Assembly: GCA_020283715.1 (NCBI GenBank)
Contig: JAIQCW010000306.1
Location: 1 to 53,760, forward strand
Reading direction: 5' to 3'
DNA: 53,760 nucleotides
Source: Cytauxzoon felis
Lineage: Eukaryota > Apicomplexa > Aconoidasida > Piroplasmida > Theileriidae
The notes below the pieces were generated by a model. That model did no database searches and was not told the DNA's origin. It saw nothing but the letters and a program-made list of their open reading frames with translations. Shown here piece after piece: positions 1 to 51,288 of this stretch; the stretch's first letter is position 1; each line of letters starts with the position of its first letter. Made by a program: the position numbers and the translations under genes.

Positions 1-180
1 CTCTATTTACCTCACCTCGACTCCCATTGATCGTCTCGGATTCTTCGCCACGATCTCCGGGAGTGGCTATACTCTTTAGAGATAGGTAATTGGAAGAGCT
101 GACGGCAGGACGACGAGAGGTTGGACCGTTGGTAGAGGTAACCTCAGGTGGAACAGAGTTGGATTGGACTTCAGGTGGAT
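1..180 (-). repeat. Palindromic mosaic repeat, copy 1 (in frame in XRN1)
   Basis: Contains the core module as GCCACGATCTCCGGGAGTGG, the CTCTTTAGAG stem, the CTGACGGCAGGAC module and two ACCTCAGGT-type modules. It is read in frame at the distal part of the XRN1 reading frame ([17 protein letters not shown] motifs). Bases 1-67 are identical to 4170-4236, the second copy in the same gene; identity may extend beyond the window edge. Confidence 0.85.
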
Positions 181-3100
181 AACCTTCAATATATCCATTA
201 ATATTGAGTACGAGTTTGAGTATATGATATATTTCATCTTCAAAGAGGCATTGGTAGTTACCGTATGTGAGTTTGAGTAGTTTGAATGGTTGTGTTTGGC
301 AGTAGTTGTTAATTTGGTTGATTTTGAATTTTAATTGTGTATCATTGAGGTTATTGTAGATGAGTTGTGGATTGATGGTATCATTGATTGGGTTATTTGT
401 TTCTAGGAAATTGAAAATTTCAGGGAATTGATTTTGATAATTTTCAATTAGTTTGATACAATTTGTTGAGTAGAGTACACATCTTAATGGATCTATATGT
501 TGAAGTTTACCGTCACCTCCACCATCAGCATACTTTGTATATCCAGGTAGGCATAATATTGAATTTGTATTATTGATATAATCAATAGTGATAAGATTCA
601 TACCGATATCGTTTTTATTATTGGAAAGGAATAATTTTTTAAAGATTACTTCAGCAACATTGATATTAATATTAGCGAGTATACAAATTTTATCAAATGT
701 AACCCATTCATGTAGATTAATATTAATAATATTATGATAGATATAAAGGAATTTTTTAAAATCTAATAGAGAATTATAAGATAATGTATATTTATAATTG
801 GGTAATTTAAATAGAGCAGATATATTATTAAATGTATTATTATTAATATCTATATAACCAATTTTACCATACATACTACCAGGTAATATAGATATAACTT
901 GTAATTTATAATTATTATATTTACCATATAATAATTTATAATTATTTATAATATTAAATTTATATATTTGTATTATATTTGTATTATAATTATAATTACA
1001 ATATTCCCCATAATTATTATTTAATAAATTGAAATTATTATTAATAAATATTACAAATGGTAAATATATATGTTTTATATTAACATCATTTATATTTGTA
1101 TATGTTATTATTACATTTTCACATTTATATTCTAAATTTAATAATTTACATTGTTTTACTGTATTTAAATTATCTGTTATTTTACAACCTGGTATATTTT
1201 TAAATAAATTTAATAATATTTTTATATTTTTATCTTGTAATTTTTTATTATTATGGGGTTTTTTATTTATTATTATACCATTTTTTTCTAAATTTTCATC
1301 TAATTTTCTTACTATATCTCTATATTCATTTAAATTTGTCATTTGTAATTTACCATTTATATATTTTACATATGGTGTTGTTATAGATTTTAATATACCA
1401 AATTGTTTATATGGATATCCTACCATTATATAATTACTTTTTAATGCATATTTTATATTATTTATTACATCATTACTTAATGATTGATTGATACGTAGAT
1501 AAATACTTGGAAATCTTGATTTACTATTAAATACATCTACACCATACTTTGTTGAGGTTAGATATGGTAAAGAGGATAATGTCGGGAACCATATATTCCT
1601 AGGGGTTTTATAACGAAGGTCACCGAACGGAGTGAGGTTAGCGAACGAAGTGAGCGGACCGAAGTTTCTAGAGGGACCGGAAGGAACGAACGGAGTGAGG
1701 TGACGGGAGGGACTGTAGTTTCCAGAGGGACCGTAGGGACTGGAGGAATTGAGGTGACTAAAGTTTCTGGATGTATTTGATATATTGAGGTGACTAAAGT
1801 TTCTGGATGTATTTGATATATTGAGGTGACTAAAGTTTCTGGATGTATTTGATATATTGAGGTGACTAAAGTTTCTGGATGTATTTGATATATTGAGGTG
1901 ACTAAAGTTTCTGGATGTATTTGATATATTGAGGTGACTAAAGTTTCTGGATGTATTTGATATATTGAGGTGACTGAAGTTTCTGGTACCAATGGCATTT
2001 CCAGTACCAAAAAATTTCCCCTCACTACGTTCGGTGAAATTTCCTCCTTCACTACGTTCAATTATTCTCTCCTCCGTCGGAAATACCTTCCTCACTTCGT
2101 TCGGAACTTCACTTTGTGCGATGAATTTTCCTCGTTTATCGAAGAAATTTCTTCCCTCACTTCGTTCGGAATTTTCTTCATCGCTATGCTCTTTAGAATC
2201 TTCCTCACTACGTTCGGATAAGCTACCTTCACTACGTTCGGTACCCACCCCCGCCCCCTCCCATCGCTACGCTCTGTATATCCACCAAGTGGTACCCAGA
2301 GTTGATTCGGGAAACACCTCCCATCCTTCATCCTAGGATTAAAAAATGGTTGATAATCTACATGACACTTCACCAAGTTATTAAATAATCCAAATGGTGC
2401 TTCAACATTCCTTTCCACCTCTTCATTATAATAATAAATACGTGCTATACCAAATTTATTACGTTCCTTCTCTTCTTCAGTTAATTTAGGTGATTCCATA
2501 TAATATAAAATATCATCTTCTATATTCTTATCTAATAATACACTATTCATAACATCAATTAGCAACTTTTGTGGTATAATAGGTAATAATGTTACACCAC
2601 CCCAACTTACATTACAATTATCCATATCTACATCAAATTTTATAGGATAATAACGATATAAAGCTGATGTATCCTCATTCATCAATCTAGATAATACATC
2701 AGGTAATAAATATGATGCTTGTGGGGGTAACACCATCATTAATTGTTCATATGGGGTCATTGGATTTGATAAAATAAAATTAAAATTTAATACATTATAT
2801 AATGTAACATCTTTATCATTCTTCATCTTCCTAAGACTTTTAAGAAATAATAATATATCATGTATAAATGGTGGATATTTATAAGGTAAATACCAAGACC
2901 ATGATATAATACCTTTATAATAATAATATAATACCCATTGTATACCAATAAGATATTGACGTACAATATTATTAACATCTGATACAACCCCATCTTCTAT
3001 AATATTAATTTGATTACATATACCCATTTTAGCATAATAATAACGATTTTTTAAATCATTTATACTAATAGGATTATCAGGAAATTTACTATTATAATCT

Positions 3101-4797
3101 AAACCATCATAATCTATCCTACAATTTTTTACATCAATTACTGTAATCTTATATTTATTCTCATTAATATCATCCCTATCACCATATATACCACCATCAT
3201 TTGTTTTATTACCAGATATAATCTCATTTAATGAATCAATCTCTATCTTACTCCATCTATTAAAAAATTTTAATAAATTATCATAATTTACATCACCACA
3301 ATTACATGTCAACCATGGATCTATATTAGGATTATTATTTAAACTATTTGATATATACTCTCTATAAATCTTTAATAATATATTAAAATTACCATCCACT
3401 ATTTTAGAATATAATAAATGGGGTAAAAAATCATTACCTATAAATAATGATAATAATACAAAATCATCAATTACACGATCTATAATCCTACCATCATTAC
3501 GTAATCTATAATCCTCAATTAAATCATTTACAATATATTCACGTAATATACCTATATGTAATAATACATAATTATTCATATTTATCATCAATCTTATCTT
3601 TGTTGAATTCTTTAATTGTGTAAATACCATCTGCTCACGTAATAAACATATATAAGGCTCATGACTAACCAATGATAATATTATCAAATCAGCATCTAAA
3701 CCATATATACAATGAGATATATACTTAAATTTCTTATCCATATTCATTTCATTCATAACCTCATCATACCTCCTAGCCTTATCATTACGTATATACTCCA
3801 TTATCTTATGCTCACCCTCACCAGGTACATCCGAACCTGATACCACCACCTTCAAATTACGCCAATTCTCATCCTCATTTATCATCTTCATCACAAAATA
3901 CTTCATAGCCTCAGTCAATCGCTCCATAAATACAGTACCAGGAGTTATCTGAACCGGATCAAATCTATATGAAGATTCCTTAGTTTCTATACCTTCCTTT
4001 CCACTAGGCGTTCCATCTGAGGTCGTCCTACCGTCAGCTTCTACACTTGATGTCTTTCCACTCGCCGTGGAGGCCTTCTTATTTACTTCCCCCTTCGCTT
4101 CCCGTAGATCAGCTGCGGGTTCCACCTGAGGTCCAGTACTACTCTTCATTCCACTCGCCGTGGTGGCCTCTCTATTTACCTCACCTCGACTCCCATTGAT
4201 CGTCTCGGATTCTTCGCCACGATCTCCGGGAGTGGCATTACAGTTTACGGGGAGTGAATTAGAGGAGCTGTCTGCAGGACGAAGATAGTTGGATTGGACC
4301 TCGGTGGAAGAGCTATCAGTGGGAGTAAGATTTGAGGTAAGTTGAGATGTATTTTCATGTAATTCTTTAATAGATTCTGCGATAATGAGGCTTTCGGAGA
4401 AGTCTGCGGCGGCTCTGAATCGTCGTTCTCTTTGTTGTAGTATTTTAGCTTTTGGAGCGACGCCATCGATGGCAATATATAATAATTTTTTTGGCCGTAC
4501 GATATTTACGATATTAATGATAAATTGAAATATAGATACAAAGATATCATCTTCAGATTTTACATTTTGACACAATTCAACAACAGAGTGTGAACAATTA
4601 TGTATAATACCATTGGCATCCAGATATAAATTATCAAACCCTTCCGGTGCATCTGATGAACCAAATAATGTATTTCCATTATCAATTGATTTCCAGAATT
4701 CTATTGAATCAGATTTATCTAATACTGTACCCAATTGAGCTTCACATATCAATGGATAACGCTCTGCAAGCCACCGGAAAAATGTAGGAATGCCCAT
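1..4797 (-). CDS. XRN1: XRN1-type 5'-3' exoribonuclease (3' end beyond window)
   Basis: Processive 5'-to-3' exonuclease of the XRN family, acting on decapped or processed RNA. The start at 4797 gives the family N terminus MGIPTFFRWLAERYP. Catalytic-domain acidic motifs are visible: LYLDANGIIH (about residue 57), GEGEHKIMEYI (about 326), GLDADLIILS (about 366) and LFIGNDFLPH (about 451). The stretch NPRMKDGRCFPN near 2330 closes the conserved N-terminal region. The first frame stops at 2092-2094, but another minus-strand frame is open from about 2266 to the left edge. It carries WFPTLSSLPYL and VGYPYKQFGIL, which resemble the XRN1 sequence around the PAZ/D1 domain, so this is one gene with a frame switch (short intron, or a one-base error in the C-run at 2240-2262). 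Two copies of the dispersed palindromic repeat are in frame (residues about 158-275, and 1-180 of the window), and a 36-bp tandem repeat lies between the domains. The XRN1 rather than XRN2 assignment rests on the second part. Confidence 0.85.
1751..1984 (-). repeat. 36-bp tandem repeat (about 6.5 units) in XRN1
   Basis: The string GAGGTGACT recurs every 36 bp at 1751, 1787, 1823, 1859, 1895, 1931 and 1967; the units are near identical. In the frame continuous with the downstream XRN1 domain it encodes the 12-residue unit RNFSHLNISNTS. The unit length is a multiple of three and is open in more than one minus-strand frame, so copy-number change would not break the protein. Confidence 0.9.
1990..2266 (-). 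repeat. Low-complexity CGAACGNAGTGAG repeat in XRN1
   Basis: Degenerate units around CGAACGTAGTGAGG / CGAACGAAGTGAGG occur repeatedly here, with a smaller cluster at 1620-1700. In the open frame they encode ERSEG-type units (Ser/Glu-rich). The same ERSDG motif occurs in the upstream frame just before the C-run at 2240-2262, which suggests the two frames belong together. Confidence 0.7.
4001..4312 (-). repeat. Palindromic mosaic repeat, copy 2 (in frame in XRN1)
   Basis: A long copy with two CCAC..GTGG modules, the CTGAT/ATCAG-type module, the ATCTCCGGGAGTGGC core and a CTGTCTGCAGGAC module. It is translated in frame as roughly residues 158-275 of the exonuclease and lies just before the conserved ITPGT..FM segment of the catalytic domain. 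Bases 4170-4236 match copy 1 exactly. Confidence 0.85.
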
Positions 4798-4901: not shown

Positions 4902-7550
4902 CTAGGGATACTTTATATTCTTTAACTTTTTCAAGGCGTTATTTATTACAACTTCCATATGTTTTTTAGGCAAATTTATATCTCTTAATGTGGGCATATT
5001 CATGGAAATTGTCAATAAACATTGTCTAATGACACCTCCAAACTTACTCAACGATTCCTTCAAGTTATAATAAGCATCTGTATATTTCGACTTTAATAAG
5101 ACCTTCAACTCCAAATCTGTTGTCTTTGTTGATATCTTCATCATCCATCTCCTCAGTGATAATAACGAGTCAATTGTATCATAACTATTGTCCTCATTAC
5201 CATAAAGGATTGATTTAATACTTTCATCCAAGTATAAATCATACGGCTCTATAGGCTTATTGATCAATAGCCTCAATTCTGTACTCTTCCATGCATTAAC
5301 TTTACTTGTTGATTCTTTAGGATTATAAAAACATCTATTTATATACAATTCCTCTATGGTCTTGTCAAGTTTACAAATAATCTGACATATATTCTCAGTA
5401 ATGGAATCCAAATCGATCTCAACACCTCTTTTATTCCCACTTAATACAACATTACAGTGGGAAAAATAAAATTCAATCAGCTGCGATAACCTATTTATCC
5501 TCTTGTTATCATAAAGTTCATAAACATGTGAAATGATTTTATGATCAATAGGTAGTTTAAAAATCGAATCAATGTTTATAAAATTTATAAAATCCCCAAG
5601 AATCAACATCAGATTATCAACCATAACATCAATTTTCTCGGAATTGTACCCAACTTTTGAAGAGAATGATAAAATCTTAATGAAATTATCTATAGCTTCA
5701 ACGTTATCCATAGTAGTAAATTTGTCATACATTGATGATATAAATGAATATAACAGATCATTCTCAGGCAATTCATACGTATCTACACCAACATACGATA
5801 AGTTTACATCATCTCTTCTACTAGGCGTTCCACCCGAGGGCGTCCTTCCGTCAGCTTCTACACTTGAGGTCTTTCCACTAGGCGTGGTGGCCTCTCTATT
5901 TAGTTCTCCCTCCGCTTCCCTGAGATCAGCTGCGGGTAATCCACTTGAGGTCCAATCATTACCTTCACTTCCGCCACGATCTCCGGGAGTGGCTATACTC
6001 TTTAGAGATAGGTAATTGGAAGAGCTGTCTGCAAGACGAAGTGAGTCGGATTGGACCTCAGGTGGAGAGCTCTCTGTAAGACCAACGGTGTTTGTAACCT
6101 CAGGTGGACGATCTTCGGTTTTCATTCGTATATTATACTTCGGTATGAATTTGAGGTATTTTATGGTTTTGATTCCGGTATTTAGATTGAAAAATTGTGC
6201 CTTTGTGGCTATTAAAGGTGCTAAAGAGTTCATTACAGTGTGATGGAATGTGAAGTTTAGAAATTTATCCCAATTGAATGAATTTGATAATTCCATATGA
6301 TTTTTTATGGAGTTTAACAATTCTTTAGCATTTTTATAGTCAAATGACTGTAATTTTACTGAAAATTTCAGCAATTCTGCGATAATTTCTGGGTCATTTG
6401 AACTTGAACATTTTAAATTTAACAATTGCGATGAAATTATTTTATAGTCATTTTCTGTACATTTATGATTACTTTTATTCAGAAATTTAACAAAGTTTAA
6501 AAGATTCTCAGATGTTAGTGATGATGGAGGTGATGCATTAAAGAGTTTTCTGATGAAAGATTCTATTAAACCCTTTTCAATTTGGCCACATGTTTCAAGA
6601 CTCTTCATTAATCGACTTTCAGGCAAACTTGCAAGTGTAAATGAAATATCACTGGGGTCGTTTAAATTATCATCCAAGAGTTTGAGATAAGTTGAAATTG
6701 GCTTTGGATCAGTGTTTTCGAGTAAAAGGAGATCATTTAAGAAAATTTCAAAATTCTCTACACATTTAAAGAGTTTCTTGACGTTATATGAGGAATGATG
6801 AAGGAAACCATTGATGAACTCTTTGTTTGAAATCTTTAAGGACTTGAAGAGATTGGGTATCTTAATGAGATCTTTGACATCCAGAGTATCCAATTTGTTC
6901 TGAATAATGAAAACAAAGGTATAAATGACATTTGGTTGTAAAATGTAGCACAACTTATCAATAAAATAGACAAGCATACCATTTTTAATGAAGTATGTGA
7001 CATTTTTACAGAATTCAGCGTTTAAATGTTTTATTAATTCATCATTCCCATGATTTATCCTTGATATACAGGTGATTATTGATTCGTAAAGGTCAAATCC
7101 AACATCATCATTGATCAATTCTCTATTACACAAGACAGTCGAGATCTCATTAAGTACCAATTTATTATTCTCATTGACGTTAATATGTAAAGACTGTGTA
7201 ATTACATCAAATAATAAGACCAAGACATATAAATCTTGAGATTCTATGAATAATTTAAACTCTGTTTTATAAGTGTTCAATTTTATATTGTATTCCAGTA
7301 TGAAATCCATACAATTCTTAAATTTTAAGTTGTCTTCATCATCTTTGGTCAAAATTTTATTCAATTTATCTATAAAGTTTACAAAAACTACATCTTTATC
7401 ATATAAATTAACAGCTACTGGTACTATTAACTCGTTAATCTTCTTTTTCCTTTTAAATATACTAGGGATGTATATACACCTCCAATACCCTTTAATGCTC
7501 CATGGGTATCTAGGGATTAACAATGTCATTGATGAAAAAAATTGTAGCAT
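4902..7550 (-). CDS. Hypothetical 882-aa protein, possibly organellar
   Basis: I do not recognise a domain. It is a single uninterrupted frame rich in Leu, Asn and Lys with predicted helical character. The N terminus is basic and hydrophobic (MLQFFSSMTLLIPRYPW, then IFKRKKK), compatible with a mitochondrial presequence; a large helical protein with such a leader would fit the helical-repeat organellar RNA-binding families common in Apicomplexa, but no terminal RAP domain is evident, so this is only a suggestion. Residues about 480-577 are an in-frame copy of the dispersed repeat. An internal ATG at residue 8 is an alternative start. It lies 104 bp upstream of XRN1 on the same strand. Confidence 0.7.
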   Translation of the reverse strand: MLQFFSSMTLLIPRYPWSIKGYWRCIYIPSIFKRKKKINELIVPVAVNLYDKDVVFVNFIDKLNKILTKDDEDNLKFKNCMDFILEYNIKLNTYKTEFKLFIESQDLYVLVLLFDVITQSLHINVNENNKLVLNEISTVLCNRELINDDVGFDLYESIITCISRINHGNDELIKHLNAEFCKNVTYFIKNGMLVYFIDKLCYILQPNVIYTFVFIIQNKLDTLDVKDLIKIPNLFKSLKISNKEFINGFLHHSSYNVKKLFKCVENFEIFLNDLLLLENTDPKPISTYLKLLDDNLNDPSDISFTLASLPESRLMKSLETCGQIEKGLIESFIRKLFNASPPSSLTSENLLNFVKFLNKSNHKCTENDYKIISSQLLNLKCSSSNDPEIIAELLKFSVKLQSFDYKNAKELLNSIKNHMELSNSFNWDKFLNFTFHHTVMNSLAPLIATKAQFFNLNTGIKTIKYLKFIPKYNIRMKTEDRPPEVTNTVGLTESSPPEVQSDSLRLADSSSNYLSLKSIATPGDRGGSEGNDWTSSGLPAADLREAEGELNREATTPSGKTSSVEADGRTPSGGTPSRRDDVNLSYVGVDTYELPENDLLYSFISSMYDKFTTMDNVEAIDNFIKILSFSSKVGYNSEKIDVMVDNLMLILGDFINFINIDSIFKLPIDHKIISHVYELYDNKRINRLSQLIEFYFSHCNVVLSGNKRGVEIDLDSITENICQIICKLDKTIEELYINRCFYNPKESTSKVNAWKSTELRLLINKPIEPYDLYLDESIKSILYGNEDNSYDTIDSLLSLRRWMMKISTKTTDLELKVLLKSKYTDAYYNLKESLSKFGGVIRQCLLTISMNMPTLRDINLPKKHMEVVINNALKKLKNIKYP
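5818..6108 (-). repeat. Palindromic mosaic repeat, copy 3 (in frame in 882-aa gene)
   Basis: Full module order is present: CCACTAGGCGTGG-type, CTGAGATCAGCTGCGGGT, GCCACGATCTCCGGGAGTGG, CTCTTTAGAG, CTGTCTGCAAGACGA and two terminal ACCTCAGGTGGA modules. It is read without a stop as about 97 residues with the motifs [26 protein letters not shown] and LNREA. Confidence 0.85.
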
Positions 7551-11897: not shown

Positions 11898-13823
11898 ATG
11901 TTGAGTTTGACTCTTGTAAAATTTGCAAAATATGGCCCAAGTAAAGGAAGAGGTCCACTGTTAGCGAAATACGCTCCAATTGGATTTAAAAAAGGCTTTG
12001 GAGCTGTGGGATTAGGACGTCATACAAAAAAGGGTACGTAAATTATTACAATATTCATTATCTTGTAGGATTCTTCCTCATTAATAAAATGCTCGTACCA
12101 ATGCTACACGTTCCCGAAAATATCAATCCCGATGTAAGTATATACACATCATTTGATTCATTTTCTATATTCTATAATCTCATTCCCATTTGACGTTCCA
12201 CCCGGGGTCAATCCTGCCGTCAGCTCTTCTATTTATTTCCCCCTCCGCTTCCCTGAGATCAGCTACAGGATTAGGAATGATCTTGAAAAACTTGAACAAG
12301 CACTTGAAGGTCTCAAAGATAAATATGAAGTTAAGCTTGAAAAAACTAATGATGATGGTCAATACAAAGCAACACCTGATGGTACTGGTAATATTACTCC
12401 TACAGTAGTAACTGGTACAGGATATAAAGGTTTTAAACATCCTATTCCTGGTTCTAATGGTGGAACAATAAATTACATTTCAATATACAATGAAATTATA
12501 AGGGGTGTTAGAGAAGTTGAGAATGGTGAGGGATTTACAACTCAGGACGGAGGAGGCTTGTTCGTATATTATGAAAGTGATATAAGCAAGCCTCTGTTGA
12601 TATGTTTGTCTAAGGAAGGTAAAGCAGCTAATAGTCCTGATAATAAATGGTATAAACGTACGGGAAGTCCTCCTAGTTATACATGGGAAGAAGACAACAC
12701 ATTTAATAATACTCATGATCCAACTAATATTAACACGCTTAAAACTGAACTCGAAAGAATTAAAAGTGGGCTTTCTACTGGTAGTAATACTGATACAGGT
12801 TATCCTAAATTAGACTCTGTTGAAATTGATATAAGTCAAGCGCCTAATGATACATCTGGTGAAGATGGAGGTTTCTATAGATCTGGAGGAAAAGAAATTA
12901 AAGTGGAGAAGGTACAAGTCAATCAAAATGCTACTGGTGGTCAAGAGAGTACTACATGGAAATGCTATAAACATTTCAAGTCAGATAACACCCAATTTAC
13001 ACTTAAAAGGATAACGCATAGTGATGTTACTATGAAGAGTTCAAGCGGAACTCCTCAATTGAGTGAAAATATGAATATAGAAATTAAATCTGGAGGGGCG
13101 ATATATGTTTATTATCAAAGTACTACTGAAATAGATAAGCCTAGAGTTATATGTATATCTACTACCGGTGGTACTACGGGTAATACGTGGTACAAGGCAG
13201 GTACTACCGCCACTACTTGGGCTGAAGTAGAAACTAGTGCTAGTATTAAAAATAAAGATCCAAATGATACTTCTGGAGCAAATCGAGTCACTGAAACAGA
13301 CCTTAATGGAGCTGATGCTCGAGAATTTACTCCTCCTGGAGATTCCACTTATATAATTAAATTAGATAAGAGACCTAATGAGGAGGGTCCTAATAAAAAG
13401 ATTAAATATAGAACTGGTAATAAGGAGTTTACAGTTGAAAGGAAGGATGGTGATGGTCAAACTACTAATCCTGTACCAAATGGTTATGTTAGATATAAGC
13501 ATACTGGAAGTAACTTCAAGTTATATCTACATAGTTATAATGATATCAACTTGTATTCTATACCTAAATACCCACGTTTACACAACAATTCATACCCGTA
13601 GCTGATCTAAGGGAAGCGAAGGGGGAAGTAATTAGAAGAGGCTCCACGCCTAGTGGAAGGACCTCAGGTAGAACGGATATGGAAGAGATAGTGATTATAC
13701 CTATCGCTGTACACCGTTTCAACTACTTTATTATTAATACTAATTTTCATTTAGTTGAAGCCTTATGTATCACCTCATACTCCTCGTATATATGAGTATA
13801 GACACAAGAATAAAAGAGATTAG
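11898..13823 (+). CDS. MRPL41: Mitochondrial ribosomal protein mL41 (MRP-L27/L41 family)
   Basis: Small structural protein of the mitochondrial large ribosomal subunit. Three exons join in frame: 11898-12033, 12069-12133 and 13755-13823, giving 89 aa. Introns have GTACGT..TAG and GTAAGT..TTAG boundaries. The protein has the family layout: basic N terminus, a Gly-rich segment (GFGAVGLGRHTKKGFF) and the conserved VP..(L)KPYV ending, here NPD joined to LKPYVSP across intron 2. Intron 1 is 35 nt; intron 2 is 1621 nt and holds a FAINT-like gene fragment flanked by inverted half-copies of the dispersed repeat. The exons flank the insert cleanly, so the host gene should still be expressed if the long intron is spliced. 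The stop (13821-13823) overlaps the stop of the convergent coatomer alpha gene. Confidence 0.85.
12153..13601 (+). pseudogene. FAINT/DUF529-like family fragment nested in mL41 intron 2
   Basis: An open frame of 482 codons with about two and a half diverged repeats of the type expanded in Theileria: a [YR].KH segment, a hydrophobic VYY core and a W-rich end. Repeat A is near residues 90-180 (FVYYESDISKPLLI, then WYKRTG..YTW). Repeat B is near 270-360 (IYVYYQST..DKPRVICI, then TWYKAGTTATTW). A third begins at about 445 and is cut off. There is no signal peptide: residues about 14-40 are translated from the left half-repeat and the C terminus ends at the right half-repeat. I read it as a captured, doubly truncated gene piece rather than a working secreted protein. 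Base composition looks less AT-rich than the flanks. Family assignment is by pattern only. If it has its own promoter it could still be expressed. Confidence 0.6.
12192..12270 (+). repeat. Half-copy 4L of the palindromic repeat, left of FAINT fragment
   Basis: Carries CCACCCGGGGT, CTGCCGTCAGCTCTTCTATT and CTTCCCTGAGATCAGCT in the orientation opposite to the right half-copy. Together the two halves form inverted arms around the FAINT-like fragment. Confidence 0.8.
13595..13675 (+). repeat. Half-copy 4R of the palindromic repeat, right of FAINT fragment
   Basis: Carries CCCGTAGCTGATCTAAGGG, a TTAGAAGAGG tip, CCACGCCTAGTGG and ACCTCAGGT. The GTAGCTGATCT segment is the reverse complement of AGATCAGCTAC at the left arm, apart from scattered changes. 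Confidence 0.8.
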
Positions 13824-16800
13824 ATTAGATTGCATAATTGGCATATGTTGCAAGACTTTCCATGATTATTGGCGAGAGCGATTGATTGGCAGAAGGGGCA
13901 TTTAACGAAATTTTGATTATTGATTTTGGTGAATGAGATGGTGCATAATTTGATATTGCAATCGTCATTGGTATTGAAATCAATTTCGTATGCATCAGTA
14001 CCTTTTTGTTCACATAAAGTATAAATCCTTTTAGCTTTATCCATTTCTTCTTGAGCACCTTCGATATTTAAATTTAATAATCTTGTTACAAGTAATGCTG
14101 CTGTATTATAATTTTGTGCTTTCCATAATATACCAACAGCTCTACGTAAAGCTAAATAACGATGTTGTACCTTCATATCACAACATGTAAAATATGATGC
14201 AAGTTCCAAACTACGTTTAATATCAATATCCGCACATCTACTACGTTCAGATTCTAATAATACCGCCAATATATAAACACGACATATATCAATATAATCC
14301 ACCAACTCATCCGGATACTTTTGTATATATGCCATACAATATGTCAATGTTGTACGAAACTCCAACTTTGCCAAATCAAAATTACCATCTATATAAAAGA
14401 ATATAACAAATTATACAAAGGAAACATCGTGTTATATACAACCTGAGGTCCAATCCTCAGCACCTTCTCTTCCACTCGCCGTGGAGGCCTCTTCTATTTA
14501 CCTATCTCTAAAGAGCAGAGCCACTCCCAGAGATCGTGGCAGTGGTGGAGGTGGAATGAAGTGTAGTACAGGACCTCATGTGGAACCTGGAAGCGATCTA
14601 CGGGAGCTGGAAGGGGAAGTAAATAGAAGAGCTGTCTGCAAGACGAAGTTGAGGTGGAACAGCGAGTGGAAGATAAGGTTGTAACCTCAGGTGGAATATT
14701 GTATAAACATACTTGTGACATGATTATATCCTTGTTCGAGATGTTGTGTGATGACATCGATACCATTGATTGTTTCATTTGATTGTTGTATTTTTGTGAA
14801 TGTATCTTGTAATATATTTCCATCGACATTTCCATAAATTTGTTTGAGTTGTGATAATGCATCGATAAAATTGCCTTCTTTAATAGAATCGAGTATACTT
14901 TGTGTTGTTTTATTATTTAATCCTAATTCATCTTCACAAATTTGGTCCCAATCATCTAATTGTTTATCATTTAATACTCCAAATTGTTCTAAATCTGGTC
15001 CTATAGTTAAATCTTCTAATTCATCTGCCATTTTATCATAATTGACATTATCATGTCGATCTATTAATAATACCTCCAATGGCCAATTTAATTCATCACC
15101 TTCCAATCTAAATCATAGATGATATAATTTTTTTAATTCAGTCTTACCTATTGATTGGATATGGAGGTACCATGAATTTTGATTTTTCATTATCACTTTT
15201 AACTTCACCAATGCCATAAGTTGATTTACACACCTCCGATAGGTCATTATGACCACTCTCGCTTAATAAATTCGCCAGCTCTTCCATATCTCCAAGATAT
15301 AATGCTAAAGGAATTAAAAATGAGTGTTGAAATGTGAATTGGTATATTTCTTTAGGCGAACGGGATGATTTTAAGGGTATTATAGCTAGCCATGATAATT
15401 GCCAAGGCCAAGAATTTGGACGTGTCCAAGATCTACCACTAGGGCCAACACCTTTATCCTCATTTTGATTATTCCCATAAATTTCTTCTGCAATGTCCAG
15501 CATTGCCACACCAAAATTCGGTATTGGAGGGGGATGAAAGATATACAGTCTATAATGTGGAAGACAACATTCCTATAGGAGACCAGTCGTAAACATGGCT
15601 AACTAAATTAGGATTATCTTTCTTAGGTTTATTATCACTAGTAACAGGATCAGTGTATGTGCCTTTCGCATAAGGACTAAATAATTTTATAATACCCTTA
15701 TTATCATCTTCATTCTCATTACCTTGTTGTGTACCATAACCACGGTCAAAATTATCACTTTGTGCAGTACTAACAATATCCCATAACCTCATTTCAATTT
15801 AAAACGACTAATAGAAATAAAATCCTTCCAACTAACCATGTTTAATTGTAGACTGATAATCATTACGGAATTTGGATATACTTAACATTTTCTTAAGTTT
15901 ATTTACATTACCTAAAAGTTCAAGATATAAAATTAAACCAACATACCAGTAATCAAGTATAAAAATGATAACTTATCATACTCTTTACCCTTTTGATATG
16001 ATAATTCAGCAATCGTACAATTACCCTGCTCTAACGCCACATCACCCAATCTCCTCCATACAACCTAAATATATTAATAATGAAGATATAATAGATATAT
16101 TGCACACAGAACATGTAAATCAAGTAATGTCTTTCATCATCTTCCCACTCGGCGTTCCACCTGAGGTTATATCCTTATCTTCCACTCGCCGTGGTGGCTT
16201 CTTCTATTTACCTCCCCTTCCAGCTCCCGTGGATCGCTTACAGGTATTCCACCTGAGGTCCAATCCCTACCTCCACCATTGCCACGATCTCCGGGAGTGG
16301 CTTTACTCTTTAGAGATATGTAATTAAAAGAGCTGACGGCAGGACCTCGAGTGGACGGCAAGTGGAAGATAAGGTGGATTGGACTTCAGGTGGAGCGGCA
16401 AATGGAATATTTATAAACGTACGGTATCATCGATATTGATGGCATCTTCGAGTGCGAGATTGAGTAGTTTGAATTGTAATGAGATTTCGAATTTATGTTT
16501 ATGATCATGTAGTATTTTTCTGGCTAGATTGGGTTGTTGGATATTGATGAGGTGTGCGACTATAGATTTGGAGTATATTTTGTTATTATTAACGAGTGTA
16601 TTGGCTGTATTGATATCATTGATATATAGTGCGAGTTTGAATGAGTAATCGTAGGAGTTGATGGGTAATTTGAAGCAACGATGATATCTATTGATAAGAT
16701 ATAATATTTTATTATTGATTGTGAGTATATATATAGGATTTTGTATAGATTTGATAATACCATATGATCCAGATATGAGTAGATAATAGATATGTGTACT

Positions 16801-20323: not shown

Positions 20324-21186
20324 ATGACATTAGCAAAGACCAGATTATTGAAGGAATTGAAGGAGATTAGCAAGTCTAATGATTCAGATATTAAACTCAT
20401 TGTTTCGTAAGTTTTAAAAAACTTCAATGAAGACTTTACACCTTTCCCTCTCAGTGATTTAAATATTTTCAACTGGACTGCATATATCAAAGGACCAGAT
20501 AACACACCTTATGAGGTTAGTAGAAAATAAAACTTTATATTCATACCTATACAGAAGGGAATTTTCAAACTCTCCATCGTATGTCCAATTTCATACCCTA
20601 TACAACCTCCAATGGTAAACTTTGTCACCAAATGCTTCCATCCAAACATTAATTTCCAAACTGGTATGTTTAACTGTAAATTAGCTTATGAGTGATGTTT
20701 TATATACATAAATTTCATTAAATACAACTGTTTTCGTCTTGCAGATAGCTTCCACATGAGGTATATCTTTTCCATTACATGGAGATTTTCTATATACTTC
20801 ACTCTGATTCCCGTAGATCATCCTCGGTATATTGTCTACTGGGAAGAACAGGCCTCATGTGAAGGCTATATGCATGTCAATAAAATTACAAAAAAGCACA
20901 ATATGGTAGACAACATGTTTATTCAATAATTTTGACCAGTATTACCATCCAATTATATATAATTTCTATAGGTGAGGTATGTATGGACATATTAAAGTGT
21001 AATTGGAGTCCAGCATGGACATTACAGTATTTGTGCCGCGGTATAATTTATATTCTCAGTGAACCTAATGCAGATAGTCCTTTGAATTGTGATGCTGGTA
21101 ATTTGATAAGATCTGGTGATATGGTTGGCTATCGTTCAATGGCTAAGATGTATACATATGAGTATGCTTTGAAGATTAGGGAATGA
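20324..21186 (+). CDS. Ubiquitin-conjugating enzyme E2
   Basis: Carries activated ubiquitin (or a ubiquitin-like protein) on its active-site Cys. Four exons, 20324-20406, 20455-20515, 20555-20663 and 20972-21186, join in frame to 155 aa with consensus GT..AG boundaries. UBC-fold landmarks: WTAYIKGPDNTPYE, the CFHPNI segment with the HPN triad, and the active-site stretch EVCMDILKCNWSPAWTL with Cys three residues after the exon 4 junction. The C-terminal part (LSEPNADSPLN) is typical. No N-terminal targeting sequence is seen, so cytosolic or nuclear. An upstream ATG at about 20313 ends after four codons. Intron 3 (308 nt) contains a degenerate copy of the dispersed repeat. The E2 subclass is not determined; the active-site region is somewhat PEX4/UBC-like. 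Confidence 0.88.
20735..20866 (+). repeat. Degenerate palindromic repeat, copy 8 (E2 intron 3)
   Basis: Recognisable GTCTTGCAGATAGCT, CCACATGAGGT, TTCCCGTAGATCATC and CCTCATGTGAA modules, but no intact core. It appears to be an older, decayed copy. Confidence 0.55.
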
Positions 21187-33100: not shown

Positions 33101-33544
33101 AGGGAAGTGGATGGACAAATGAATACTGAGGCCACAGCGGTGAGTGGCGACACTATAGATTCCGGTCCTGTCTCTACAGATAACTCTTCCAATTATCTAT
33201 CCGTAAACGGTATAGTCACTCCCAGAGATCATGGCGAAGGTAACTCCGGTATAGATGAATGCATGTCACATATGGACGACCATGTTGTAAAGGTGAAAAA
33301 CGGCATTAGTGACAGTATGTATATAGGCAGTGTTAATATGTCGAATTATATACAATATGTGAATGAATGTACTGGTAATTCAATAATTGTTGAAGAAGAT
33401 GGCGCAGTAAATATAGATGATAAAGTGTTGGTTAAGAAGGAATGTAATAACCAATGGGTAATTGAAGGTACATTAGATCCATCATATTACCTGGCAAGAA
33501 AGATATTAAGTAAATTACATTATAAGATAGAGCCCATATATTAA
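30165..33544 (+). CDS. CPSF2: Cleavage and polyadenylation specificity factor 100-kDa subunit (CPSF2/Cft2-like)
   Basis: Catalytically inactive metallo-beta-lactamase/beta-CASP partner of CPSF73 in mRNA 3'-end processing. Exons 30165-30319, 30492-31857, 32185-32546 and 32635-33544 give 930 aa in frame. The start aligns with the family N terminus; RILLNCGWSLDFS corresponds to LLDCGWD in other CPSF2 proteins, and ITDGDFEHAGCL replaces the zinc-binding HxHxDH motif. GGSLWHI, DGNVLIPIDVD and the acidic MEDRVYMEDYG region follow in family order. The insert around residues 230-270 is Lys/Asn-rich. Intron 2 (31858-32184) holds one copy of the dispersed repeat, and exon 4 (33090-33238) holds another in frame. 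An earlier in-frame ATG at 30144 is possible. Confidence 0.85.
31913..32138 (-). repeat. Palindromic mosaic repeat, copy 11 (CPSF2 intron 2)
   Basis: GTCTTGCAGACAGCT, CTGCCGTCAGCTTCTCTATT, CCCTGAGATCAGCTGCGGG, ACGATCTCCGGGAGTGGC core and the CCGTTTACGG stem form, ending in a GGAAGTAAAT tip. It occupies most of the 327-nt intron. Confidence 0.85.
33090..33238 (+). repeat. Palindromic mosaic repeat, copy 12 (in frame in CPSF2 exon 4)
   Basis: Diverged but clear: AGATAATCTCAGGGAAG, CCACAGCGGTGAGTGG, CCGTAAACGG stem and CACTCCCAGAGATCATGG core. It is translated as DNLREVDGQ, then NYLSVNGIVTPRDHGE, corresponding residue for residue to the [15 protein letters not shown] motif in XRN1 and the 882-aa protein. 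Confidence 0.75.
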
Positions 33545-35958: not shown

Positions 35959-36150
35959 TTCTCTGGCAGAGAGCTCATCTTTTAGTTCCCCCTCCATTCC
36001 CTGAGATCAGCTACGGGTATTCCACTTGAGGTTACATCACTATTTCCGCCACGATCTCTGGGAGTGGCTCTACTCTTTAGAGATAGGTAATTGGAAGAGG
36101 CCACCACGGCGAGCGGAAGGGAAAGTATATATGTAACCTCGGTCGGAAAG
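35959..36150 (-). repeat. Palindromic mosaic repeat, copy 14 (intergenic)
   Basis: Lies between the convergent Bre1-like and HSP70 genes. Modules: CTCTGGCAGAGAG, CCCTGAGATCAGCTACGGG, CCACTTGAGGT, CCACGATCTCTGGGAGTGG core, CTCTTTAGAG stem, AATTGGAAGAGG tip, CCACCACGGCGAGCGG. Confidence 0.85.
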
Positions 36151-43309: not shown

Positions 43310-43556
43310 GTTCCACCTCCTTCACCGAGCTCCAATCCACATATGTTCCACTCGCCGTGGAGGCCTCTCCACCTGAGGTTACAACCTTATATTCCACTAG
43401 GCGTGGAGCCTCCTCCAATTACACATCTCTTAAGAGTAGAGCCACTCCCAGAGATCGTGGCGAGGGTAGTGATTGGACCTCAAGTGGAATACCCGCAGCT
43501 GATCTCAGGGAAGCGGAGGGGGAGATAAATATAGAAGCTGACGGCAGGACCTCGGA
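43310..43556 (+). repeat. Palindromic mosaic repeat, copy 15 (intergenic, after ELP3)
   Basis: CCACTCGCCGTGGAGGCCTC, CCACCTGAGGT, CCACTAGGCGTGG, CTCTTAAGAG stem variant, CCACTCCCAGAGATCGTGGC core, ACCTCAAGTGG, GCAGCTGATCTCAGGGAAGC, CTGACGGCAGGAC. It lies 17 bp beyond the ELP3 stop. Confidence 0.85.
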
Positions 43557-45027: not shown

Positions 45028-48000
45028 TCACTTGAGGTTAGAGAAGAATTTCTTGAAGAATGGATGTTGTTCATTAGAATTCTTTGGTTTCTTTCGAGGT
45101 TTATTATTAGAAGAAGGTAGCAAGTGCTTATATTGTAGCTGTTTCTTTAATGATCCCGATAGACCGGCAAGACCAGTAGCTTTTTTTGATATGACTACTT
45201 GATCATCATTATTAGGTATACTCATATCAGTTTGATTAATCTCTTCATCATTATCTACATCATCACTAGCTGAGATGATCTCTTGTAATAATTCATCTTG
45301 TATGCTTGGCCTCATATATATCAAATTAGATGAGTCCTTAACCACATCGGCCGAGCTCGATACATTATAAGCATAGCCCTTAGTGATGTTAAGATAATGA
45401 TTTGAACATTATACTTACCTGATCAATAATAAATTGTTGTCTTTTATCAGCAAATATCATTTCTTGTGTATCTTTACTAACAAGACTATAGAAAAATGCA
45501 TTGAATCCATGTTCATCAGTCTTATTCTTAGGTCTGAGAATACGTCCTAAACGTTGAGCCTCTTGGCGCCTAAAAATGAATATGGAGATTCCACCAAGTA
45601 TAAAAACCTTGAAGCAAAGTTGAATGATATCTGAATAACGACATTTGCGCACGGTATATCCAAAGCATTATCACCGACTTTGGATAAAAATATACTGTTG
45701 AATGTATTCTCGTTCTACAATTAAAATATTAACTTTAAGAAAATATCACCCGTAGCTGATCTCAGGGAAGCGGAAGGGGAAGCAAATAGAAGAGCTGTCT
45801 GCAAGACGAAGGAAGGTAGGATTGGACATCAGGTGGAATAGGTATCACTTAGATAACAGTTAATAATAGGCTTATTGTAGGATAAACATACTTTGAATTT
45901 ATTTAAAATGATGATTCTTTCAGTTGAGCTGACTTTTCCATAGATGAATGGTCGATTTAACATTTTAGCGACGTGTAATAGTGCGAAGAGATTATCGGAG
46001 AAGACGATAACTTTATCACCTCTGGCTTCATGGAATTTTAATAGATATTCGCATGTCGCTAATTTAATTGGATTACAACTCCATAAGCGTCTTTTCTTAG
46101 CGCTTGTACTCCTAAGGTATTCTCTATAAAAGGGTGCTGTCATTGGACACCAGATTTCTTGACATATAACTTTGGCTAAGAATCCTTTTTCTTGTAATTC
46201 TAACCAATTTGCTTCATATAATTTTGGACCAATAAGCCATTGTAGATCTCTAATAAGATCATCTTCCCTGACAAGTGTGGCTGTTAAACCGAGTTTACAG
46301 TGTGATCTAATAATTTCATTGATTCTACGGAACGCTGGTGCAGGAACAAATTGCACTTCATCAAATATTAATAATCCCCATTCTCTCTCTTTAATTTGGT
46401 TCAATATTCTATCGGTAGTCTCTCTATGTTTCCTGGAGTAAGCCATCATAGTATAAGTGGATACCAATACACCAGCCTCATTAGAGTCCCATAAATCAGA
46501 TTTATTTTCTGATGTTAGAGATAATAAATGTGTACTTGATATATTTGTAAAGTCTGTAAACTGTTTTATCCATTGTTCTACAGCCACAGCGGATGTTGTG
46601 AGGATGAAAATTGGTTTCCTTACAGTACATGCAGCTACAATACCCGTTAAGGTTTTACCAGCACCGCAAGGTAATACAATTATACCAGACCGTGCACGAC
46701 CATTACTAAACATTCTCCTCAATGCTCTCTCTTGATAGTAACGGATTTTTATATTAGATCTTATACAACATGTTAGTGATGGCGTCTTATTATCCTTACG
46801 GAAATCATATTCCATGACCAGTGGTCTACGCATAGATTGAAGTGCTTCACGTTTCAAATCCTCAATTTTCTCCTGATGTACTTCAAAAGAATAAACCTCG
46901 GTGCTAGGGTTGTCATTCTTCTCATTAATATCGGCATTGGTACTAAACACTAAAAAAGTGTTATAATCGGAGTGCTAAAACATAAACGTACCAAATGAAG
47001 ATAAATCTACAGTAGGAACAATACTTGTCAGATAGTCTGAGCTCTCTGCATTTTTACTTGAGGTTTCCCAAGGATTAGATTGGATTCTGGAGTTCTTAAT
47101 CTCTTTGTTCGTCAATAATAAATCCAATTCCTTACGGTCATACGACTCGATCCAATAACCATTGTCTTTAAGAACCAATTTAATCTTACCAAAAGCCTAG
47201 AAAATATAAAGATATATAATATCAAAGTAAACATTCTAGTTTGTATAGATCCGAGGTTTTCAGTCAGAGATTAAGTCTGGATTGGACATTACAGTTGGAG
47301 TCATGACCATATCTTCCAATCGCCATCCCACCATAGGTCCTGTCGTCAGCTTCTCCACCTTAGGTCGTCTTGCAGACAACTCTTCTAATTACCTATCTAT
47401 AAAGAGTAAAGCCACTCCCAGAGATCGTGGCGGAAGTGTAGTGATTGGACCTCAAGTGGAACCCGTAGCTGATCTCAGGGAAGTGGAGGGGGAACTAAAT
47501 AGAAGAGCTGACGGCAGGACTTATTGTAGAGTAGAGTGGAATAGTTGTGGCGACTTGATCAGTGTTTGTAACCTCAGGTGGAGATTTATCTTAAGAACCA
47601 ACTTCAGGTGAATATAACGATGTAATATAGAAATTGGTTGATATCATCAAATAGTTATATTTCTGAATATATACATACCGAAGCGGTGGTTATAATTGAA
47701 TCTTTTAACTTCTTGGGTAATATATTTTTGGAGAATTTATCAAGGTTGTTTAGTAATTCATCAATGGTGAGTCCTACTGAGATGGCCGTATATAACGAGA
47801 ATACAGTGACCTAAAGGGTGAAATGAATAATTATTAAAACTAATAATAATTACCTGATATTCGTGAATTAATTCAGGTCTACATACTGGTTCTGCGATAG
47901 TTACCAAGAAATCAAGAGCTTGTTTACTTACAGGTGTAAACAGTTCTAAATATAAATAGCCATCTGGACATACCCATACTGGCCTTGTATCATGTGTATC

Positions 48001-48114: not shown

Positions 48115-48301
48115 TAAAATACAATTTAATAAAATTATAAATTTTATAATGTACAAAAAATTAAAAAGTTTTTTTAATTAATCTAAATTAAATGTGTGGT
48201 TTTTTTAATCTGTTAATTTATAATCTGACAAATCTGCTATATCAGACAAGGCTTCTTTTAGACACCTAACATATTTCATATTAACACATATACCACAAAA
48301 C

Positions 48302-51288
48302 TTACTTTACAACGTGAATACATTTCTCACGTTTCTCTGTAACTTGTTTAGACTCCGCCATTAACTCGTCATACAATTCGCTCTTGTACAACTTTGAAAT
48401 CAATTCCTGTTGTACTGATTCCGTTGCCTTGTTTACCATGAAATGCATTATACACTTTGGAACAGCGTCTGCTACATTTTTCCTAAATGAAAGTAATGAG
48501 GAGATTGAAGAGGAGAATAGCTAGTGTATATTATAGGTCGGGGGTATGCATCACTAATTAAGGTATAAAAACTCACCTAACAATAGAAAAGTAACTACTG
48601 ATTAATGTCTTGATGAGTTCAGTTTCCACAAGCTCACGTTCAGTAGGGTCATTACTTAACATGACAACCTTTGGTATATTTGGGAGCCAAATTGCATTAC
48701 TAGAGTTTTCTTTACTCTGAAAATGATATGAAATCATCAACAAATCGTTGACGAACCTTATCAAATATTATTTTATTCGATTGTAAAATGGTTTTGGGTG
48801 AGGTCTCATTCTTCAAAACTGTCTTTGGTGAAGTTCCCGGATCAAATTTGGGACCACTTGCAACTAAATCAACAGGAATCTGGAGGGATTTTATGAAGAT
48901 AGAGAGCAAATGCTATTATTAAACTTACACTCGGCTTTGGTAATGGTGATGTGTTAATTGGACTTGTTGTTGTATGATGTTCTACATCTGAGATTGATTA
49001 TTAAAACAATTCAATCATTCAACATGCCTGTTGTATTATAAACTTCAGCTAATGCTGAGTTACGTAGGAAGTCCGGATGGTTTGTGTTGATGTATGCCAA
49101 CTCAATCTGTATATTAATAATCGATCCCAGCAATATTACTAACCTTTATAATGTTACGAATAATATCCTTTGTTGGTTCTAAGCATTGCCTTAATAAATC
49201 TTTGATGACTGATAAGATCTTATTCCTCATGTTCATATATCGATTGATCTCCGGTACATCACAATTCTCCAGGATATTTTGCAGCTCCTCATATACCTGA
49301 AGAATTACAAGTGGAATCAAAATTAATCAAATAGACTATAGACGTTGGGTCAGTGTTGTTTTATAGAATCCTTAGATCCCAAATAGTTAAATACATTTAA
49401 CTTACTTGATCAACACATTGTAGCGATGGATATTCTAGTAGTTTGATTTGTTTCTTAACTAAATTCTCAAAGGCAATTTCAGGTACAAAAAGTGCAGAGT
49501 ATGGACCAGTAGAGTTTCTAATAGCAGTTCTAATTTCAATATCAGATAACCCAGAGAGTGGACTGAAAGCATTTAAAGCTCTGAGATAACTATCATTAAA
49601 GATGAAATAAATCCTAGCGCCACCATATAATCTTGAAGTATGATGTTTTGGAACAATTTTACCATCGATTGTATCTTTAAATCTTTGAGAGAATTTAGTG
49701 AAAAAATGAAGCAAACATGCGCCAGGAGAGCTCGTTAGATAAGCTGCACCATGAACTGTTGAATAGATGTAATGAAGATTGGATATCACATACTATTTAA
49801 TTCATTCTCATAATCATGTAACAACGTTACAATCTTAGACTTTACATATGGCAACATATCTTTTATATGGCTAGTCAACATCTATAAGAAGATGAATGAT
49901 GAGTAGTTTAAGTTTAAAATTAAATGAACTTTATTTAAATACGGCTAAGATCCATGAAATTGTCTTGATACTCCACCTGAAGTTGTCTTGCAGACAGCTT
50001 CTCTATTTAGCTCTGCCTCCGCTTCCCTGAGATCAGCTACGGGTACCACTTGAGGTCCAGTACTACTCTTCATTCCACTCGAGGTTACATCCTTAACTCT
50101 ACTTTCATCACTACCTTCATCATCGCCACGATCTCCGGGAGTGGCTCTACTCTTTAGAGATAGGTAATGGAAGAGGCCTCCACGGCGAGTGAAAGACAAT
50201 GTTGTAACCTCAAGTGGAGAGCTGACGGCAGGACTGACCTCAGGTGGAGTTGTCTATAAGACCAACAGTGATATTAGTGGAGGGAAGGGTTGATGTATAA
50301 TATTTCAACGTACTTCATTTAGTAATGTGGTAAGATATTTTATTCCACATTTATTTGCTATAGTACGATAAATAGGATGATTTTTAAAAAAGTTTTCTTC
50401 ATCGACGTGATTATGCGGTACATTTGAGTTCAATCCACGTTCCCTGCATACAACACCAACGTAACTATAGGAGGATGAAATGTATTATAACAAGATTAGA
50501 TGGTCTTTATGAATATGTATCCAGTTTTGCATCAACTTACCCCTTTCTGAGTTTATAAATCTTCCCCTGTAGGAGATCGAGTGCATCTACACCTTCATCT
50601 ATAACATCACATTTGGTAATTACACCAATGGTCCTTAAACCGGTAGGATCGACTTCTCTAGCCATTTTAAGACTATCAGATGTAGCAATATCGGTGTTTG
50701 CAGCAGAAAGTGCAAGGATGATACATGTAGGTTTAGTAATGTACTCTAGGATCATTTGACGAATTTGAAGCTCAATATCATTTGTCTGATCACCAACAGG
50801 TACTTTGGTGATACCAGGAAGGTCTATTAGTGTTAAATCTATCACTTTTGGAGATGTGATTTTCAAGAAAATTGGTACAGATGACACATTCTTCGTTGAA
50901 CCTGTTATACGTTCCGTCTCGGATCTTATCTCCTCCCTTATCTTTTGAAAATCATCGAAGATGACTCCACGTTTATGAGCGAATTCTCCATGGTCAATAG
51001 AATTCGAATCATGACATAACTATAGGAATATGATTAAAATAATATAAATGGCAGTTAATGTGTGGATATATACAAGTCATAACAACGTACTCTTAGTATT
51101 AATGGCCTTTGTGTAACTATTCCAGATCCTTTAGGCAAGAATGAAAACCCTACTATAGCCTCTAACACAGATGATTTACCAACTGATTGTGCTCCAATTA
51201 CAGCTATTGCTGGTAAATCTATATTAGTATCACCCGTCCATGCAAGTACATTATGTAATCTACTAACTAATGGTATTAACTTCTCCAT
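48302..51288 (-). CDS. Dynamin-related GTPase
   Basis: Membrane-fission GTPase. The start at 51288 ([17 protein letters not shown]) leads directly into the P-loop GAQSVGKSS. Exon near 50887-50537 has [13 protein letters not shown] (switch 2) and TKCDVIDEG (G4-type). Later exons give the stalk ([23 protein letters not shown]). The last exon carries a GED-like helix ([16 protein letters not shown]) and ends at 48302. A Pro/Lys/Thr-rich variable insert sits near 48800. No PH or Pro-rich tail is seen, as in other apicomplexan dynamins, which serve apicoplast or mitochondrial division and secretory organelles; which class this is was not determined. One intron contains copy 18 of the dispersed repeat. 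Confidence 0.88.
49971..50263 (-). repeat. Palindromic mosaic repeat, copy 18 (dynamin intron)
   Basis: CCACCTGAAGT, GTCTTGCAGACAGCT, CCCTGAGATCAGCTACGGGT, CCACGATCTCCGGGAGTGG core, CTCTTTAGAG stem, CCTCCACGGCGAGTG, two ACCTCA[AG]GTGGA modules and CTGACGGCAGGAC. The copy is complete. Confidence 0.85.

What the first reader, a model, noticed from the sequence alone, without database searches (positions are those of the whole stretch)
1..50263. A dispersed family of modular palindromic elements, about 18 copies in 54 kb
Copies share a vocabulary of short modules: ACCT-x-AGGT, CCAC-x5-GTGG, CTGA-GA-TCAG, GTCT-TGC-AGAC, CTCT-TT-AGAG and a core with GCCAC..GTGGC ends (CCACTCCCGGAGATCGTGGC). Most modules are themselves palindromes, and complete copies end in inverted tips (TCTATTTACC / GGTAAATAGA). 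Module order, orientation and number vary between copies, which looks like mosaic growth by palindrome shuffling rather than simple decay of one master copy. I know of no such family in piroplasms, but could not search.
Basis: partly seen in the sequence, partly recalled or inferred. Interest (0 to 1): 0.9.

Follow-up and report, generated by a model that had tools for sequence, protein, structure and literature searches.

The report
Palindromic repeats inside a parasite's proteins
A blood parasite of cats appears to carry thousands of copies of a short mix-and-match DNA repeat, some of which sit readable and in frame inside its proteins, among them essential enzymes and a vaccine-candidate antigen.

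Summary
Observation confirmed, and larger than reported. The window belongs to Cytauxzoon felis or a very close relative (its cf76 is 93-95% identical to the database antigen). It holds 18 element clusters; a 222,668-base sample has 126, covering 10.3% of it, against 1 in a reversed-sequence control, scaling to about 4,900 per genome.

Examples: about 110 extra aa in the XRN exonuclease, absent from nine aligned relatives, and about 135 in RNA polymerase III RPC1. cf76 carries two copies; it was the only match to the element peptide in one protein search.

Alternative modules at five slots assort almost independently (9 of 10 pairs): combinatorial rather than decay of one master. It works like Rickettsia palindromic elements, without detected sequence kinship. 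No convincing target-site duplication; five transposase or integrase families absent with working controls. A 2022 survey reports no transposable elements in C. felis (PMC9141347). How it spreads is unknown.

The parts
47..179 (-). Partial copy (G-F-d-A-A) in frame in the long open frame 2-2266 (-), near the contig start
   Evidence: too near the edge to be classified
4012..4280 (-). Composite copy in frame in the XRN 5'-3' exonuclease ORF 2092-4797 (-); absent from nine aligned relatives
   Evidence: pLDDT below 50 over residues 156-274
5829..6108 (-). Complete copy in frame in ORF 4905-7577 (-)
12197..12264 (-). Left B-half arm (A-d-E-B) of a divergent arm pair around a gene
12265..13599 (+). 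Interior between the arms: open frame of about 440 aa, no Pfam family, no homolog among the candidates scored
13600..13672 (+). Right B-half arm (B-E-C-A)
14438..14695 (+). Copy antisense between coding blocks of one strand; probably intronic
16156..16394 (-). Complete copy beside the WD40 ORF 16411-18123 (-)
18235..18657 (+). Long composite copy, antisense between coding blocks of one strand
20736..20799 (+). Degenerate remnant (D, A, weak E)
23958..24173 (+). Complete copy
25435..25509 (+). Partial copy (A-G-f)
31915..32130 (-). Copy antisense inside an apparent intron of a beta-CASP/CPSF2-like gene (GT at 31858, AG ending at 32184, read by eye)
33091..33235 (+). Rearranged copy (B then G), in frame in ORF 32615-33541 (+), which has a sub-threshold CPSF100_C match
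35995..36118 (-). Partial copy
43346..43550 (+). Copy just downstream of ORF 42634-43293 (+)
45754..45837 (+). B-half copy
47337..47612 (+). Complete copy, used as the orientation reference; part of it was the profile seed
49972..50248 (-). Complete copy

Best explanation
A lineage-specific, non-autonomous repeat family of Cytauxzoon. SHOWN: a density of 126 clusters in 222,668 bases, in spacers, an intron and exons; copies in exons keep one orientation and one frame; discrete module variants are nearly independent of each other among copies. INFERRED: new copies land more or less at random. In exons only insertions that keep the frame survive, because the element has one commonly stop-free frame of six and encodes a hydrophilic, disordered loop that proteins tolerate. 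Copies then keep exchanging short stretches, by gene conversion or template switching between hairpin-forming copies, so modules mix instead of decaying together. In effect it is a eukaryotic nuclear counterpart of the Rickettsia palindromic elements. The enzyme or process that makes new copies is not identified; my guess is copying during repair or replication through hairpins, or a transposase not recognised here.
For: Abundance: 126 clusters in 222,668 bases, control 1; 3,165 first-look candidates genome-wide, 40 scored. Frame: of 39 ORF-embedded clusters, module G lies in one orientation and phase in 31 of 32 hits, B in 25 of 26, F in 23 of 23, E in 25 of 27; 36 of 52 clusters flanked by same-strand coding DNA are sense and in frame on both sides. 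Frame filter: in 60 cores outside such ORFs the coding frame is open in 30, the other five frames in 0, 0, 0, 8 and 3. Insertion: XRN against nine relatives; RPC1 against solved structures only. Tolerance: XRN residues 156-274 have pLDDT below 50 while 579 of 901 residues have 70 or more. In published work the cf76 ORF, which holds two copies, was amplified from cDNA and its transcripts were seen by in situ hybridisation (PMC3748084, passages). Weak peptide constraint: synonymous share in coding copies 0.30 and 0.31 against 0.31 and 0.27 expected. Shuffling: 9 of 10 slot pairs not associated; mean r2 between halves 0.012, about 1/n = 0.013. Allelic change: this genome's cf76 differs from the database allele only in a stretch around its first element; residues 1-118 and about the last 420 are identical.
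Against: No transposition event was seen: no convincing target-site duplication, and no empty site compared beyond XRN and RPC1. No mobilising enzyme was found, but the Helitron and hAT searches had silent controls and other transposase families were not searched. Of the 52 gene-internal clusters 16 are not in frame on both sides: 5 antisense, 9 sense without a frame match on at least one side (one of them not scorable), 2 unorientable; I take these as intronic but read splice sites for only one. Coding copies have a higher synonymous share than copies without coding flanks (0.30 against 0.16, 0.31 against 0.23), so some peptide constraint is not excluded. Copies without coding flanks keep the frame-compatible loop length more often than chance (17 of 30, P = 0.007), which plain random insertion does not predict. 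A star phylogeny with recurrent mutation could also lower r2, and even within halves the Mantel test is weak (p 0.06 and 0.12), so the argument rests on the discrete module types. One slot pair is associated (L-G, p = 0.016). I examined no transcript or peptide data myself.
Confidence: 0.65

Rival explanations
1. An ordinary MITE family: short terminal-inverted-repeat transposons moved by a DNA transposase since lost or too diverged to recognise.
For: Outer A modules form inverted ends (67 clusters begin with A- and end with A+); a longer version has inverted arms around a conserved 250-bp core, 10 homologous copies in the sample and 395 first-look candidates genome-wide, 40 scored.
Against: No convincing target-site duplication at offsets -6 to 12 and lengths 2 to 10; the two outer A arms of a copy do not match each other better than arms of other copies; rve, DDE_3, MULE, phage-integrase and Y1 families give 0 hits with controls ringing; PMC9141347 found no trace of DNA-transposon genes in the apicomplexan genomes it analysed (passages).
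Confidence: 0.2
2. A selected peptide module: the encoded peptides are used, for instance as shared decoy epitopes or as a source of antigen variation.
For: cf76, a seroreactive surface antigen, has two copies, one in its C-terminal part, which PMC3748084 reports as highly immunogenic (passages); the cf76 alleles differ around an element; among 98 other matches in the genome, 82 lie in stop-free frames of 300 aa or more, 43 distinct by contig and length; coding copies have a higher synonymous share than copies without coding flanks.
Against: The synonymous share of coding copies is about that expected without selection; copies lie in internal enzymes such as XRN and RPC1; most sample copies are not in frame in exons (18 of 116 classified are); a later vaccine study found cf76 not highly immunogenic (PMC10058880, passages).
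Confidence: 0.1
3. Introners: elements that create introns and are removed by splicing.
For: At least one copy lies in an apparent intron (31915-32130).
Against: That copy sits about 55 bases inside both apparent splice sites; exon copies keep the frame and have no stops in the scored core segments, which a spliced element would not need; the published cf76 is a single exon and the database protein contains both copies.
Confidence: 0.03
4. Local growth: each copy arose where it stands by hairpin-primed or template-switch copying, with no movement of a unit.
For: Repeated outer modules (window 5829-6108, L031 4188-4713) and a d-A duplication in cf76.
Against: 58 sample clusters carry both the same G and B halves, and 310 of 323 A modules lie in a cluster with a core; independent growth would not repeat that.
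Confidence: 0.07

Closest known systems
Rickettsia palindromic elements (RPE)
   Same: Short repeats inserted in unrelated genes, nearly half of the first reported ones in frame in genomic ORFs, encoding a conserved peptide (PMC10969869, passages).
   Different: Nuclear eukaryotic genome; about 4,900 clusters if scaled, rather than dozens; alternative modules mixed at slots; no sequence match detected.
PARCEL (palindromic amphipathic repeat coding elements)
   Same: Coding DNA with dyad symmetry, reported also from eukaryotic microbes (PMC2996958, abstract).
   Different: PARCELs are tandem 25-residue amphipathic repeats; here dispersed hydrophilic inserts in otherwise ordinary genes.
Coding palindromes of Nematomorpha mitochondria
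   Same: Inverted repeats inside protein-coding genes of a eukaryote (PMC6649704, passages).
   Different: Mitochondrial, perfect inverted repeats; here nuclear, a dispersed family, imperfect.
MITEs
   Same: Short repeats with inverted ends at high copy number.
   Different: No convincing target-site duplication, no arm correspondence, no transposase found in the families searched.
Palindromic elements of Magnusiomyces mitochondria (translational bypassing)
   Same: Palindromes interrupting protein genes (named in PMC6649704).
   Different: Those are transcribed but skipped by the ribosome; here the frame is kept, so skipping is not needed.

Membership tests
Rickettsia palindromic elements | In-frame insertion in protein genes | tested here: met
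Rickettsia palindromic elements | Also present outside genes | tested here: met
   91 clusters with no coding flank
Rickettsia palindromic elements | Sequence homology to a known RPE | tested here: inconclusive
   Only cf76 matched in one protein search, which scored 339 candidates of similar length sharing 5-residue words; RPE sequences were not compared directly
MITE | Terminal inverted repeats | tested here: inconclusive
   Inverted A ends exist but arms do not correspond within a copy
MITE | Target-site duplication | tested here: not met
   67 clusters; best z 2.5 among all offsets and lengths, at length 2
MITE | A transposase that could move it | tested here: inconclusive
   5 families absent with working controls, 2 with silent controls; reverse transcriptase only in the ORF with the telomerase RNA-binding domain; other families not searched
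Introner | Splice sites at the element ends, removal from mRNA | tested here: inconclusive
   Frame kept in exons and the one intronic copy read lies inside a larger intron, both against it; no RNA data examined
PARCEL | Tandem 25-residue amphipathic repeats | tested here: not met
   Peptides are not tandem 25-residue repeats (by inspection); none of 18 element-bearing ORFs matched a Pfam repeat family at 0.01
Known structured RNA | Rfam match | tested here: not met
   0 gathering-level matches in the window and in 6 loci

The most novel reading that the evidence does not exclude
A eukaryotic nuclear genome in which a palindromic repeat without a transposase or reverse transcriptase of its own has filled about a tenth of the DNA, recombines its modules almost freely, and writes a shared, combinatorial peptide vocabulary into hundreds of proteins, still turning over between isolates at a surface-antigen locus.
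Probability: 0.4. Interest if true: 0.92.

Novelty: new variant of a known kind. Interest (0 to 1): 0.85.

Why it matters
Few stable palindromes inside protein genes are on record, Rickettsia being the cited example (PMC6649704, passages); a nuclear eukaryotic case at this density would make the origin of new protein segments from repeats testable at scale. Apicomplexa are reported to lack DNA transposons and C. felis to lack transposable elements (PMC9141347, passages), so either the methods missed about 10% of this DNA or the family spreads in an unusual way. Practically, cf76, studied as a vaccine antigen, contains two copies, and by eye two of the published cf76 primers start inside element modules (PMC3748084), so PCR and serology based on those stretches could cross-react with other genes and proteins. 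Gene prediction in Cytauxzoon is affected too.

Tried and rejected
Target-site duplication at offsets -6 to 12 and lengths 2 to 10: nothing convincing (best z 2.5 among all tests). Arm-to-arm covariation of outer A modules: none (p 0.25; slot types identical on both sides 23 of 91, fewer than the 30.7 expected). Peptide-level selection: not clearly supported, not excluded. A conserved RNA structure in the 250-bp core: weak, 2 of 35 pairs with changes on both sides; one whole long element folds strongly (z -8.13), another core does not (z -1.67). A protein encoded by that core: stops in all six frames of the consensus. The gene between outward arms as a transposase: no Pfam match even at E 10, none of 7,996 scored candidates at E 0.001. 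Other dispersed families: outside elements no 12-mer that passed my complexity and G+C filters occurs in more than 5 loci. Pfam scan of 18 ORFs carrying elements: 9 have a match at 0.01 and 9 have none; RPC1 domains, AP2, TFIIS, ubiquitin and CW zinc finger pass their cut-offs, while DEAD, PI3Ka, HBM and CPSF100_C are below theirs. Dropped rows: L001 (part of the window), L013 (overlaps L042) and the L012/L027 overlap; L013 is still in the 204 clusters, and the L012/L027 overlap was removed only and in the loop-length part, so carry a few duplicates outside the sample of 126. 16 clusters at locus ends were not classified (10 of 126 in the sample). One search gave one cluster (L032 3888-4167) an antisense ORF; one search scores it sense and in frame.
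Full report
WHAT IS THERE. In a sample made of the window plus 20 stretches from base 10,001 of contigs C1-C20 (up to 10,000 bases each, shorter where the contig ended; 222,668 bases in all) there are 126 clusters covering 10.3% of the bases; the same sequence read backwards gives 1. Scaled to 8.62 Mb this is about 4,900. The sample is positional, not random, and includes the flagged window; without the window it is 108 clusters in 168,908 bases (subtraction). A profile search gives 8.5% coverage, and a DNA search of the genome reports 3,165 first-look candidates, of which only 40 were scored.

WHICH ORGANISM. The XRN protein is 40-53% identical to Theileria relatives. The element peptide, searched against 5.8 billion proteins (339 candidates scored), hits one entry, the C. 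felis surface antigen cf76 (E 4e-27). cf76 itself lies in this genome at C114:6540-8708 with 93-95% identity. The source is C. felis or a very close relative.

ANATOMY. Oriented copies mostly read: outer A, a slot filled by C, D or d, then F (or f) and G, a loop, A, B (or b), E, a second slot with C, D or d, and A (by inspection). Of 126 sample clusters 58 have both halves, 43 only B, 17 only G, 8 neither; median length 185 bases. Of 323 A modules in the sample 310 lie in a cluster with a core, so modules are parts of one family, not separate mobile units. A second architecture has two B halves pointing outward. Thirteen such pairs were found in the sample; eleven have spacers of 244-319 bases, and ten of those spacers are homologous (68-92% identity), one is not. 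The spacer has 395 first-look candidates genome-wide, 40 scored, and its consensus is non-coding. The other two pairs have spacers of 922 bases (L040) and 1,336 bases (window 12,265-13,599). The window's interior is an open frame of about 440 aa with no Pfam family and no homolog found.

IN-FRAME COPIES. Of 39 clusters spanned by an open frame with coding-like flanks, almost all modules fall in one orientation and phase (G 31 of 32, B 25 of 26, F 23 of 23, E 25 of 27). A second method, a coding-state model trained on the same loci, finds 52 clusters with coding DNA on both sides of the same strand: 36 are sense and in frame on both sides, 9 sense without a frame match on at least one side (one not scorable), 5 antisense, 2 unorientable. 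In the sample, 18 of 116 classified clusters are in frame, about 700 per genome if scaled. In the genome search with cf76, 82 of 98 other matches lie in stop-free frames of 300 aa or more, 43 distinct by contig and length; 10 contain stops and 6 lie in shorter frames. That query favours coding matches.

CASES CHECKED. XRN: an insertion of about 110 aa between conserved blocks, missing from all nine relatives aligned (seven piroplasm species, T. orientalis three times). In a model built from 21 sequences it is a low-confidence loop (residues 156-274 below pLDDT 50) while 579 of 901 residues have 70 or more. RPC1 of RNA polymerase III: residues 1-337 match chain 7a6h_A (RPC1, recalled as human) at 289-626 and residues 477-721 match it at 631-878, so about 135 extra residues carry both element halves; Pfam finds Rpb1 domain 3 in two stretches. 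No piroplasm RPC1 was compared. cf76: two copies. Between this genome and the database entry the first 118 residues and about the last 420 are identical, while the stretch around the first element differs by modules and length (736 residues in the open frame here against 706). Tarigo et al. (PMC3748084; abstract, passages and section 14 seen) report cf76 as a single exon amplified from cDNA, transcripts in schizonts by in situ hybridisation, isolate length differences, and a 30-bp tandem repeat that varies in the C-terminal part. A cDNA product of a single-exon gene cannot by itself exclude genomic DNA.

WHY ONE FRAME. In 60 cores outside such ORFs the coding frame is open in 30 and the other five frames in 0, 0, 0, 8 and 3. 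A frame filter after random insertion therefore explains most of the pattern. Coding copies show little peptide constraint: synonymous share 0.30 and 0.31 against 0.31 and 0.27 expected, no stops; copies without coding flanks have 0.16 and 0.23 and 10 stops, so weak constraint is not excluded. Unexplained: copies without coding flanks keep the frame-compatible loop length in 17 of 30 cases (P 0.007). They may descend from coding copies, or some may be unrecognised exons.

SHUFFLING. At five positions with discrete alternatives, 9 of 10 pairs show no association (L-G has p 0.016). Linkage falls from mean r2 0.40 within 3 bases to 0.028 beyond 10 and 0.012 between halves, about 1/n. Halves of a copy do not share history (Mantel r 0.061, p 0.23), but within halves the test is weak too (p 0.06 and 0.12). 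A star phylogeny would also lower r2, so I rest on the module types. Copies differ from each other by 11-12% in the core, and the median best partner is 85% identical (two 100% values are probably overlapping loci).

MOVEMENT. No convincing target-site duplication, no arm-to-arm correspondence. Searches of the whole genome: reverse transcriptase only in the ORF that also carries the telomerase RNA-binding domain; rve, DDE_3, MULE, phage integrase and Y1 transposase absent with controls ringing; Helitron and hAT absent but their controls were silent, so in effect untested. At least one copy sits in an apparent intron: 31915-32130 lies about 55 bases inside both splice sites of a beta-CASP/CPSF2-like gene.

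KNOWN KINDS. It works like Rickettsia palindromic elements (features from PMC10969869 and PMC6649704, passages) but no shared sequence was detected. Rodriguez and Makalowski (PMC9141347, outline and passages) state that no transposable elements were found in C. felis and that MITE candidates in Apicomplexa were discarded. My ten paper searches listed no title or abstract reporting this family; they cover open-licence PMC papers only.

Noticed in passing
window 1712-2035: Tandem 36-base repeat, inside the open frame 2-2266 (-) next to the XRN ORF.
   Followed up: no
window 2000-2270: Local short repeat (CACTACGTTCGG-like) coding ERSEG-type peptides; not among the dispersed 12-mers.
   Followed up: partly
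window 12265-13599: Gene without detected homologs lying between two outward-facing element arms.
   Followed up: partly
L032, L034, L035, L036, L041, L042, L043, L044: Conserved 250-bp AT-rich core between outward B arms, 10 homologous copies in the sample, about 390 per genome if scaled; non-coding, function unknown.
   Followed up: partly
L031 4188-4713, L044 4512-4794, L046 1337-1616, L017 535-823, L028 123-504: A recurring loop peptide (GSSIMGMMEDGAK-like) between G and B, near-palindromic at the DNA level by eye.
   Followed up: no
window 13820-19251: Coding blocks on one strand, two of them WD40-like, which I recall as alpha-COP-like, with three element clusters in or between them.
   Followed up: no
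G000:C114:6540-8708 (L051): cf76 here lies in an open frame of 736 residues, against 706 in the database entry and 723 published for the sequenced isolate.
   Followed up: partly
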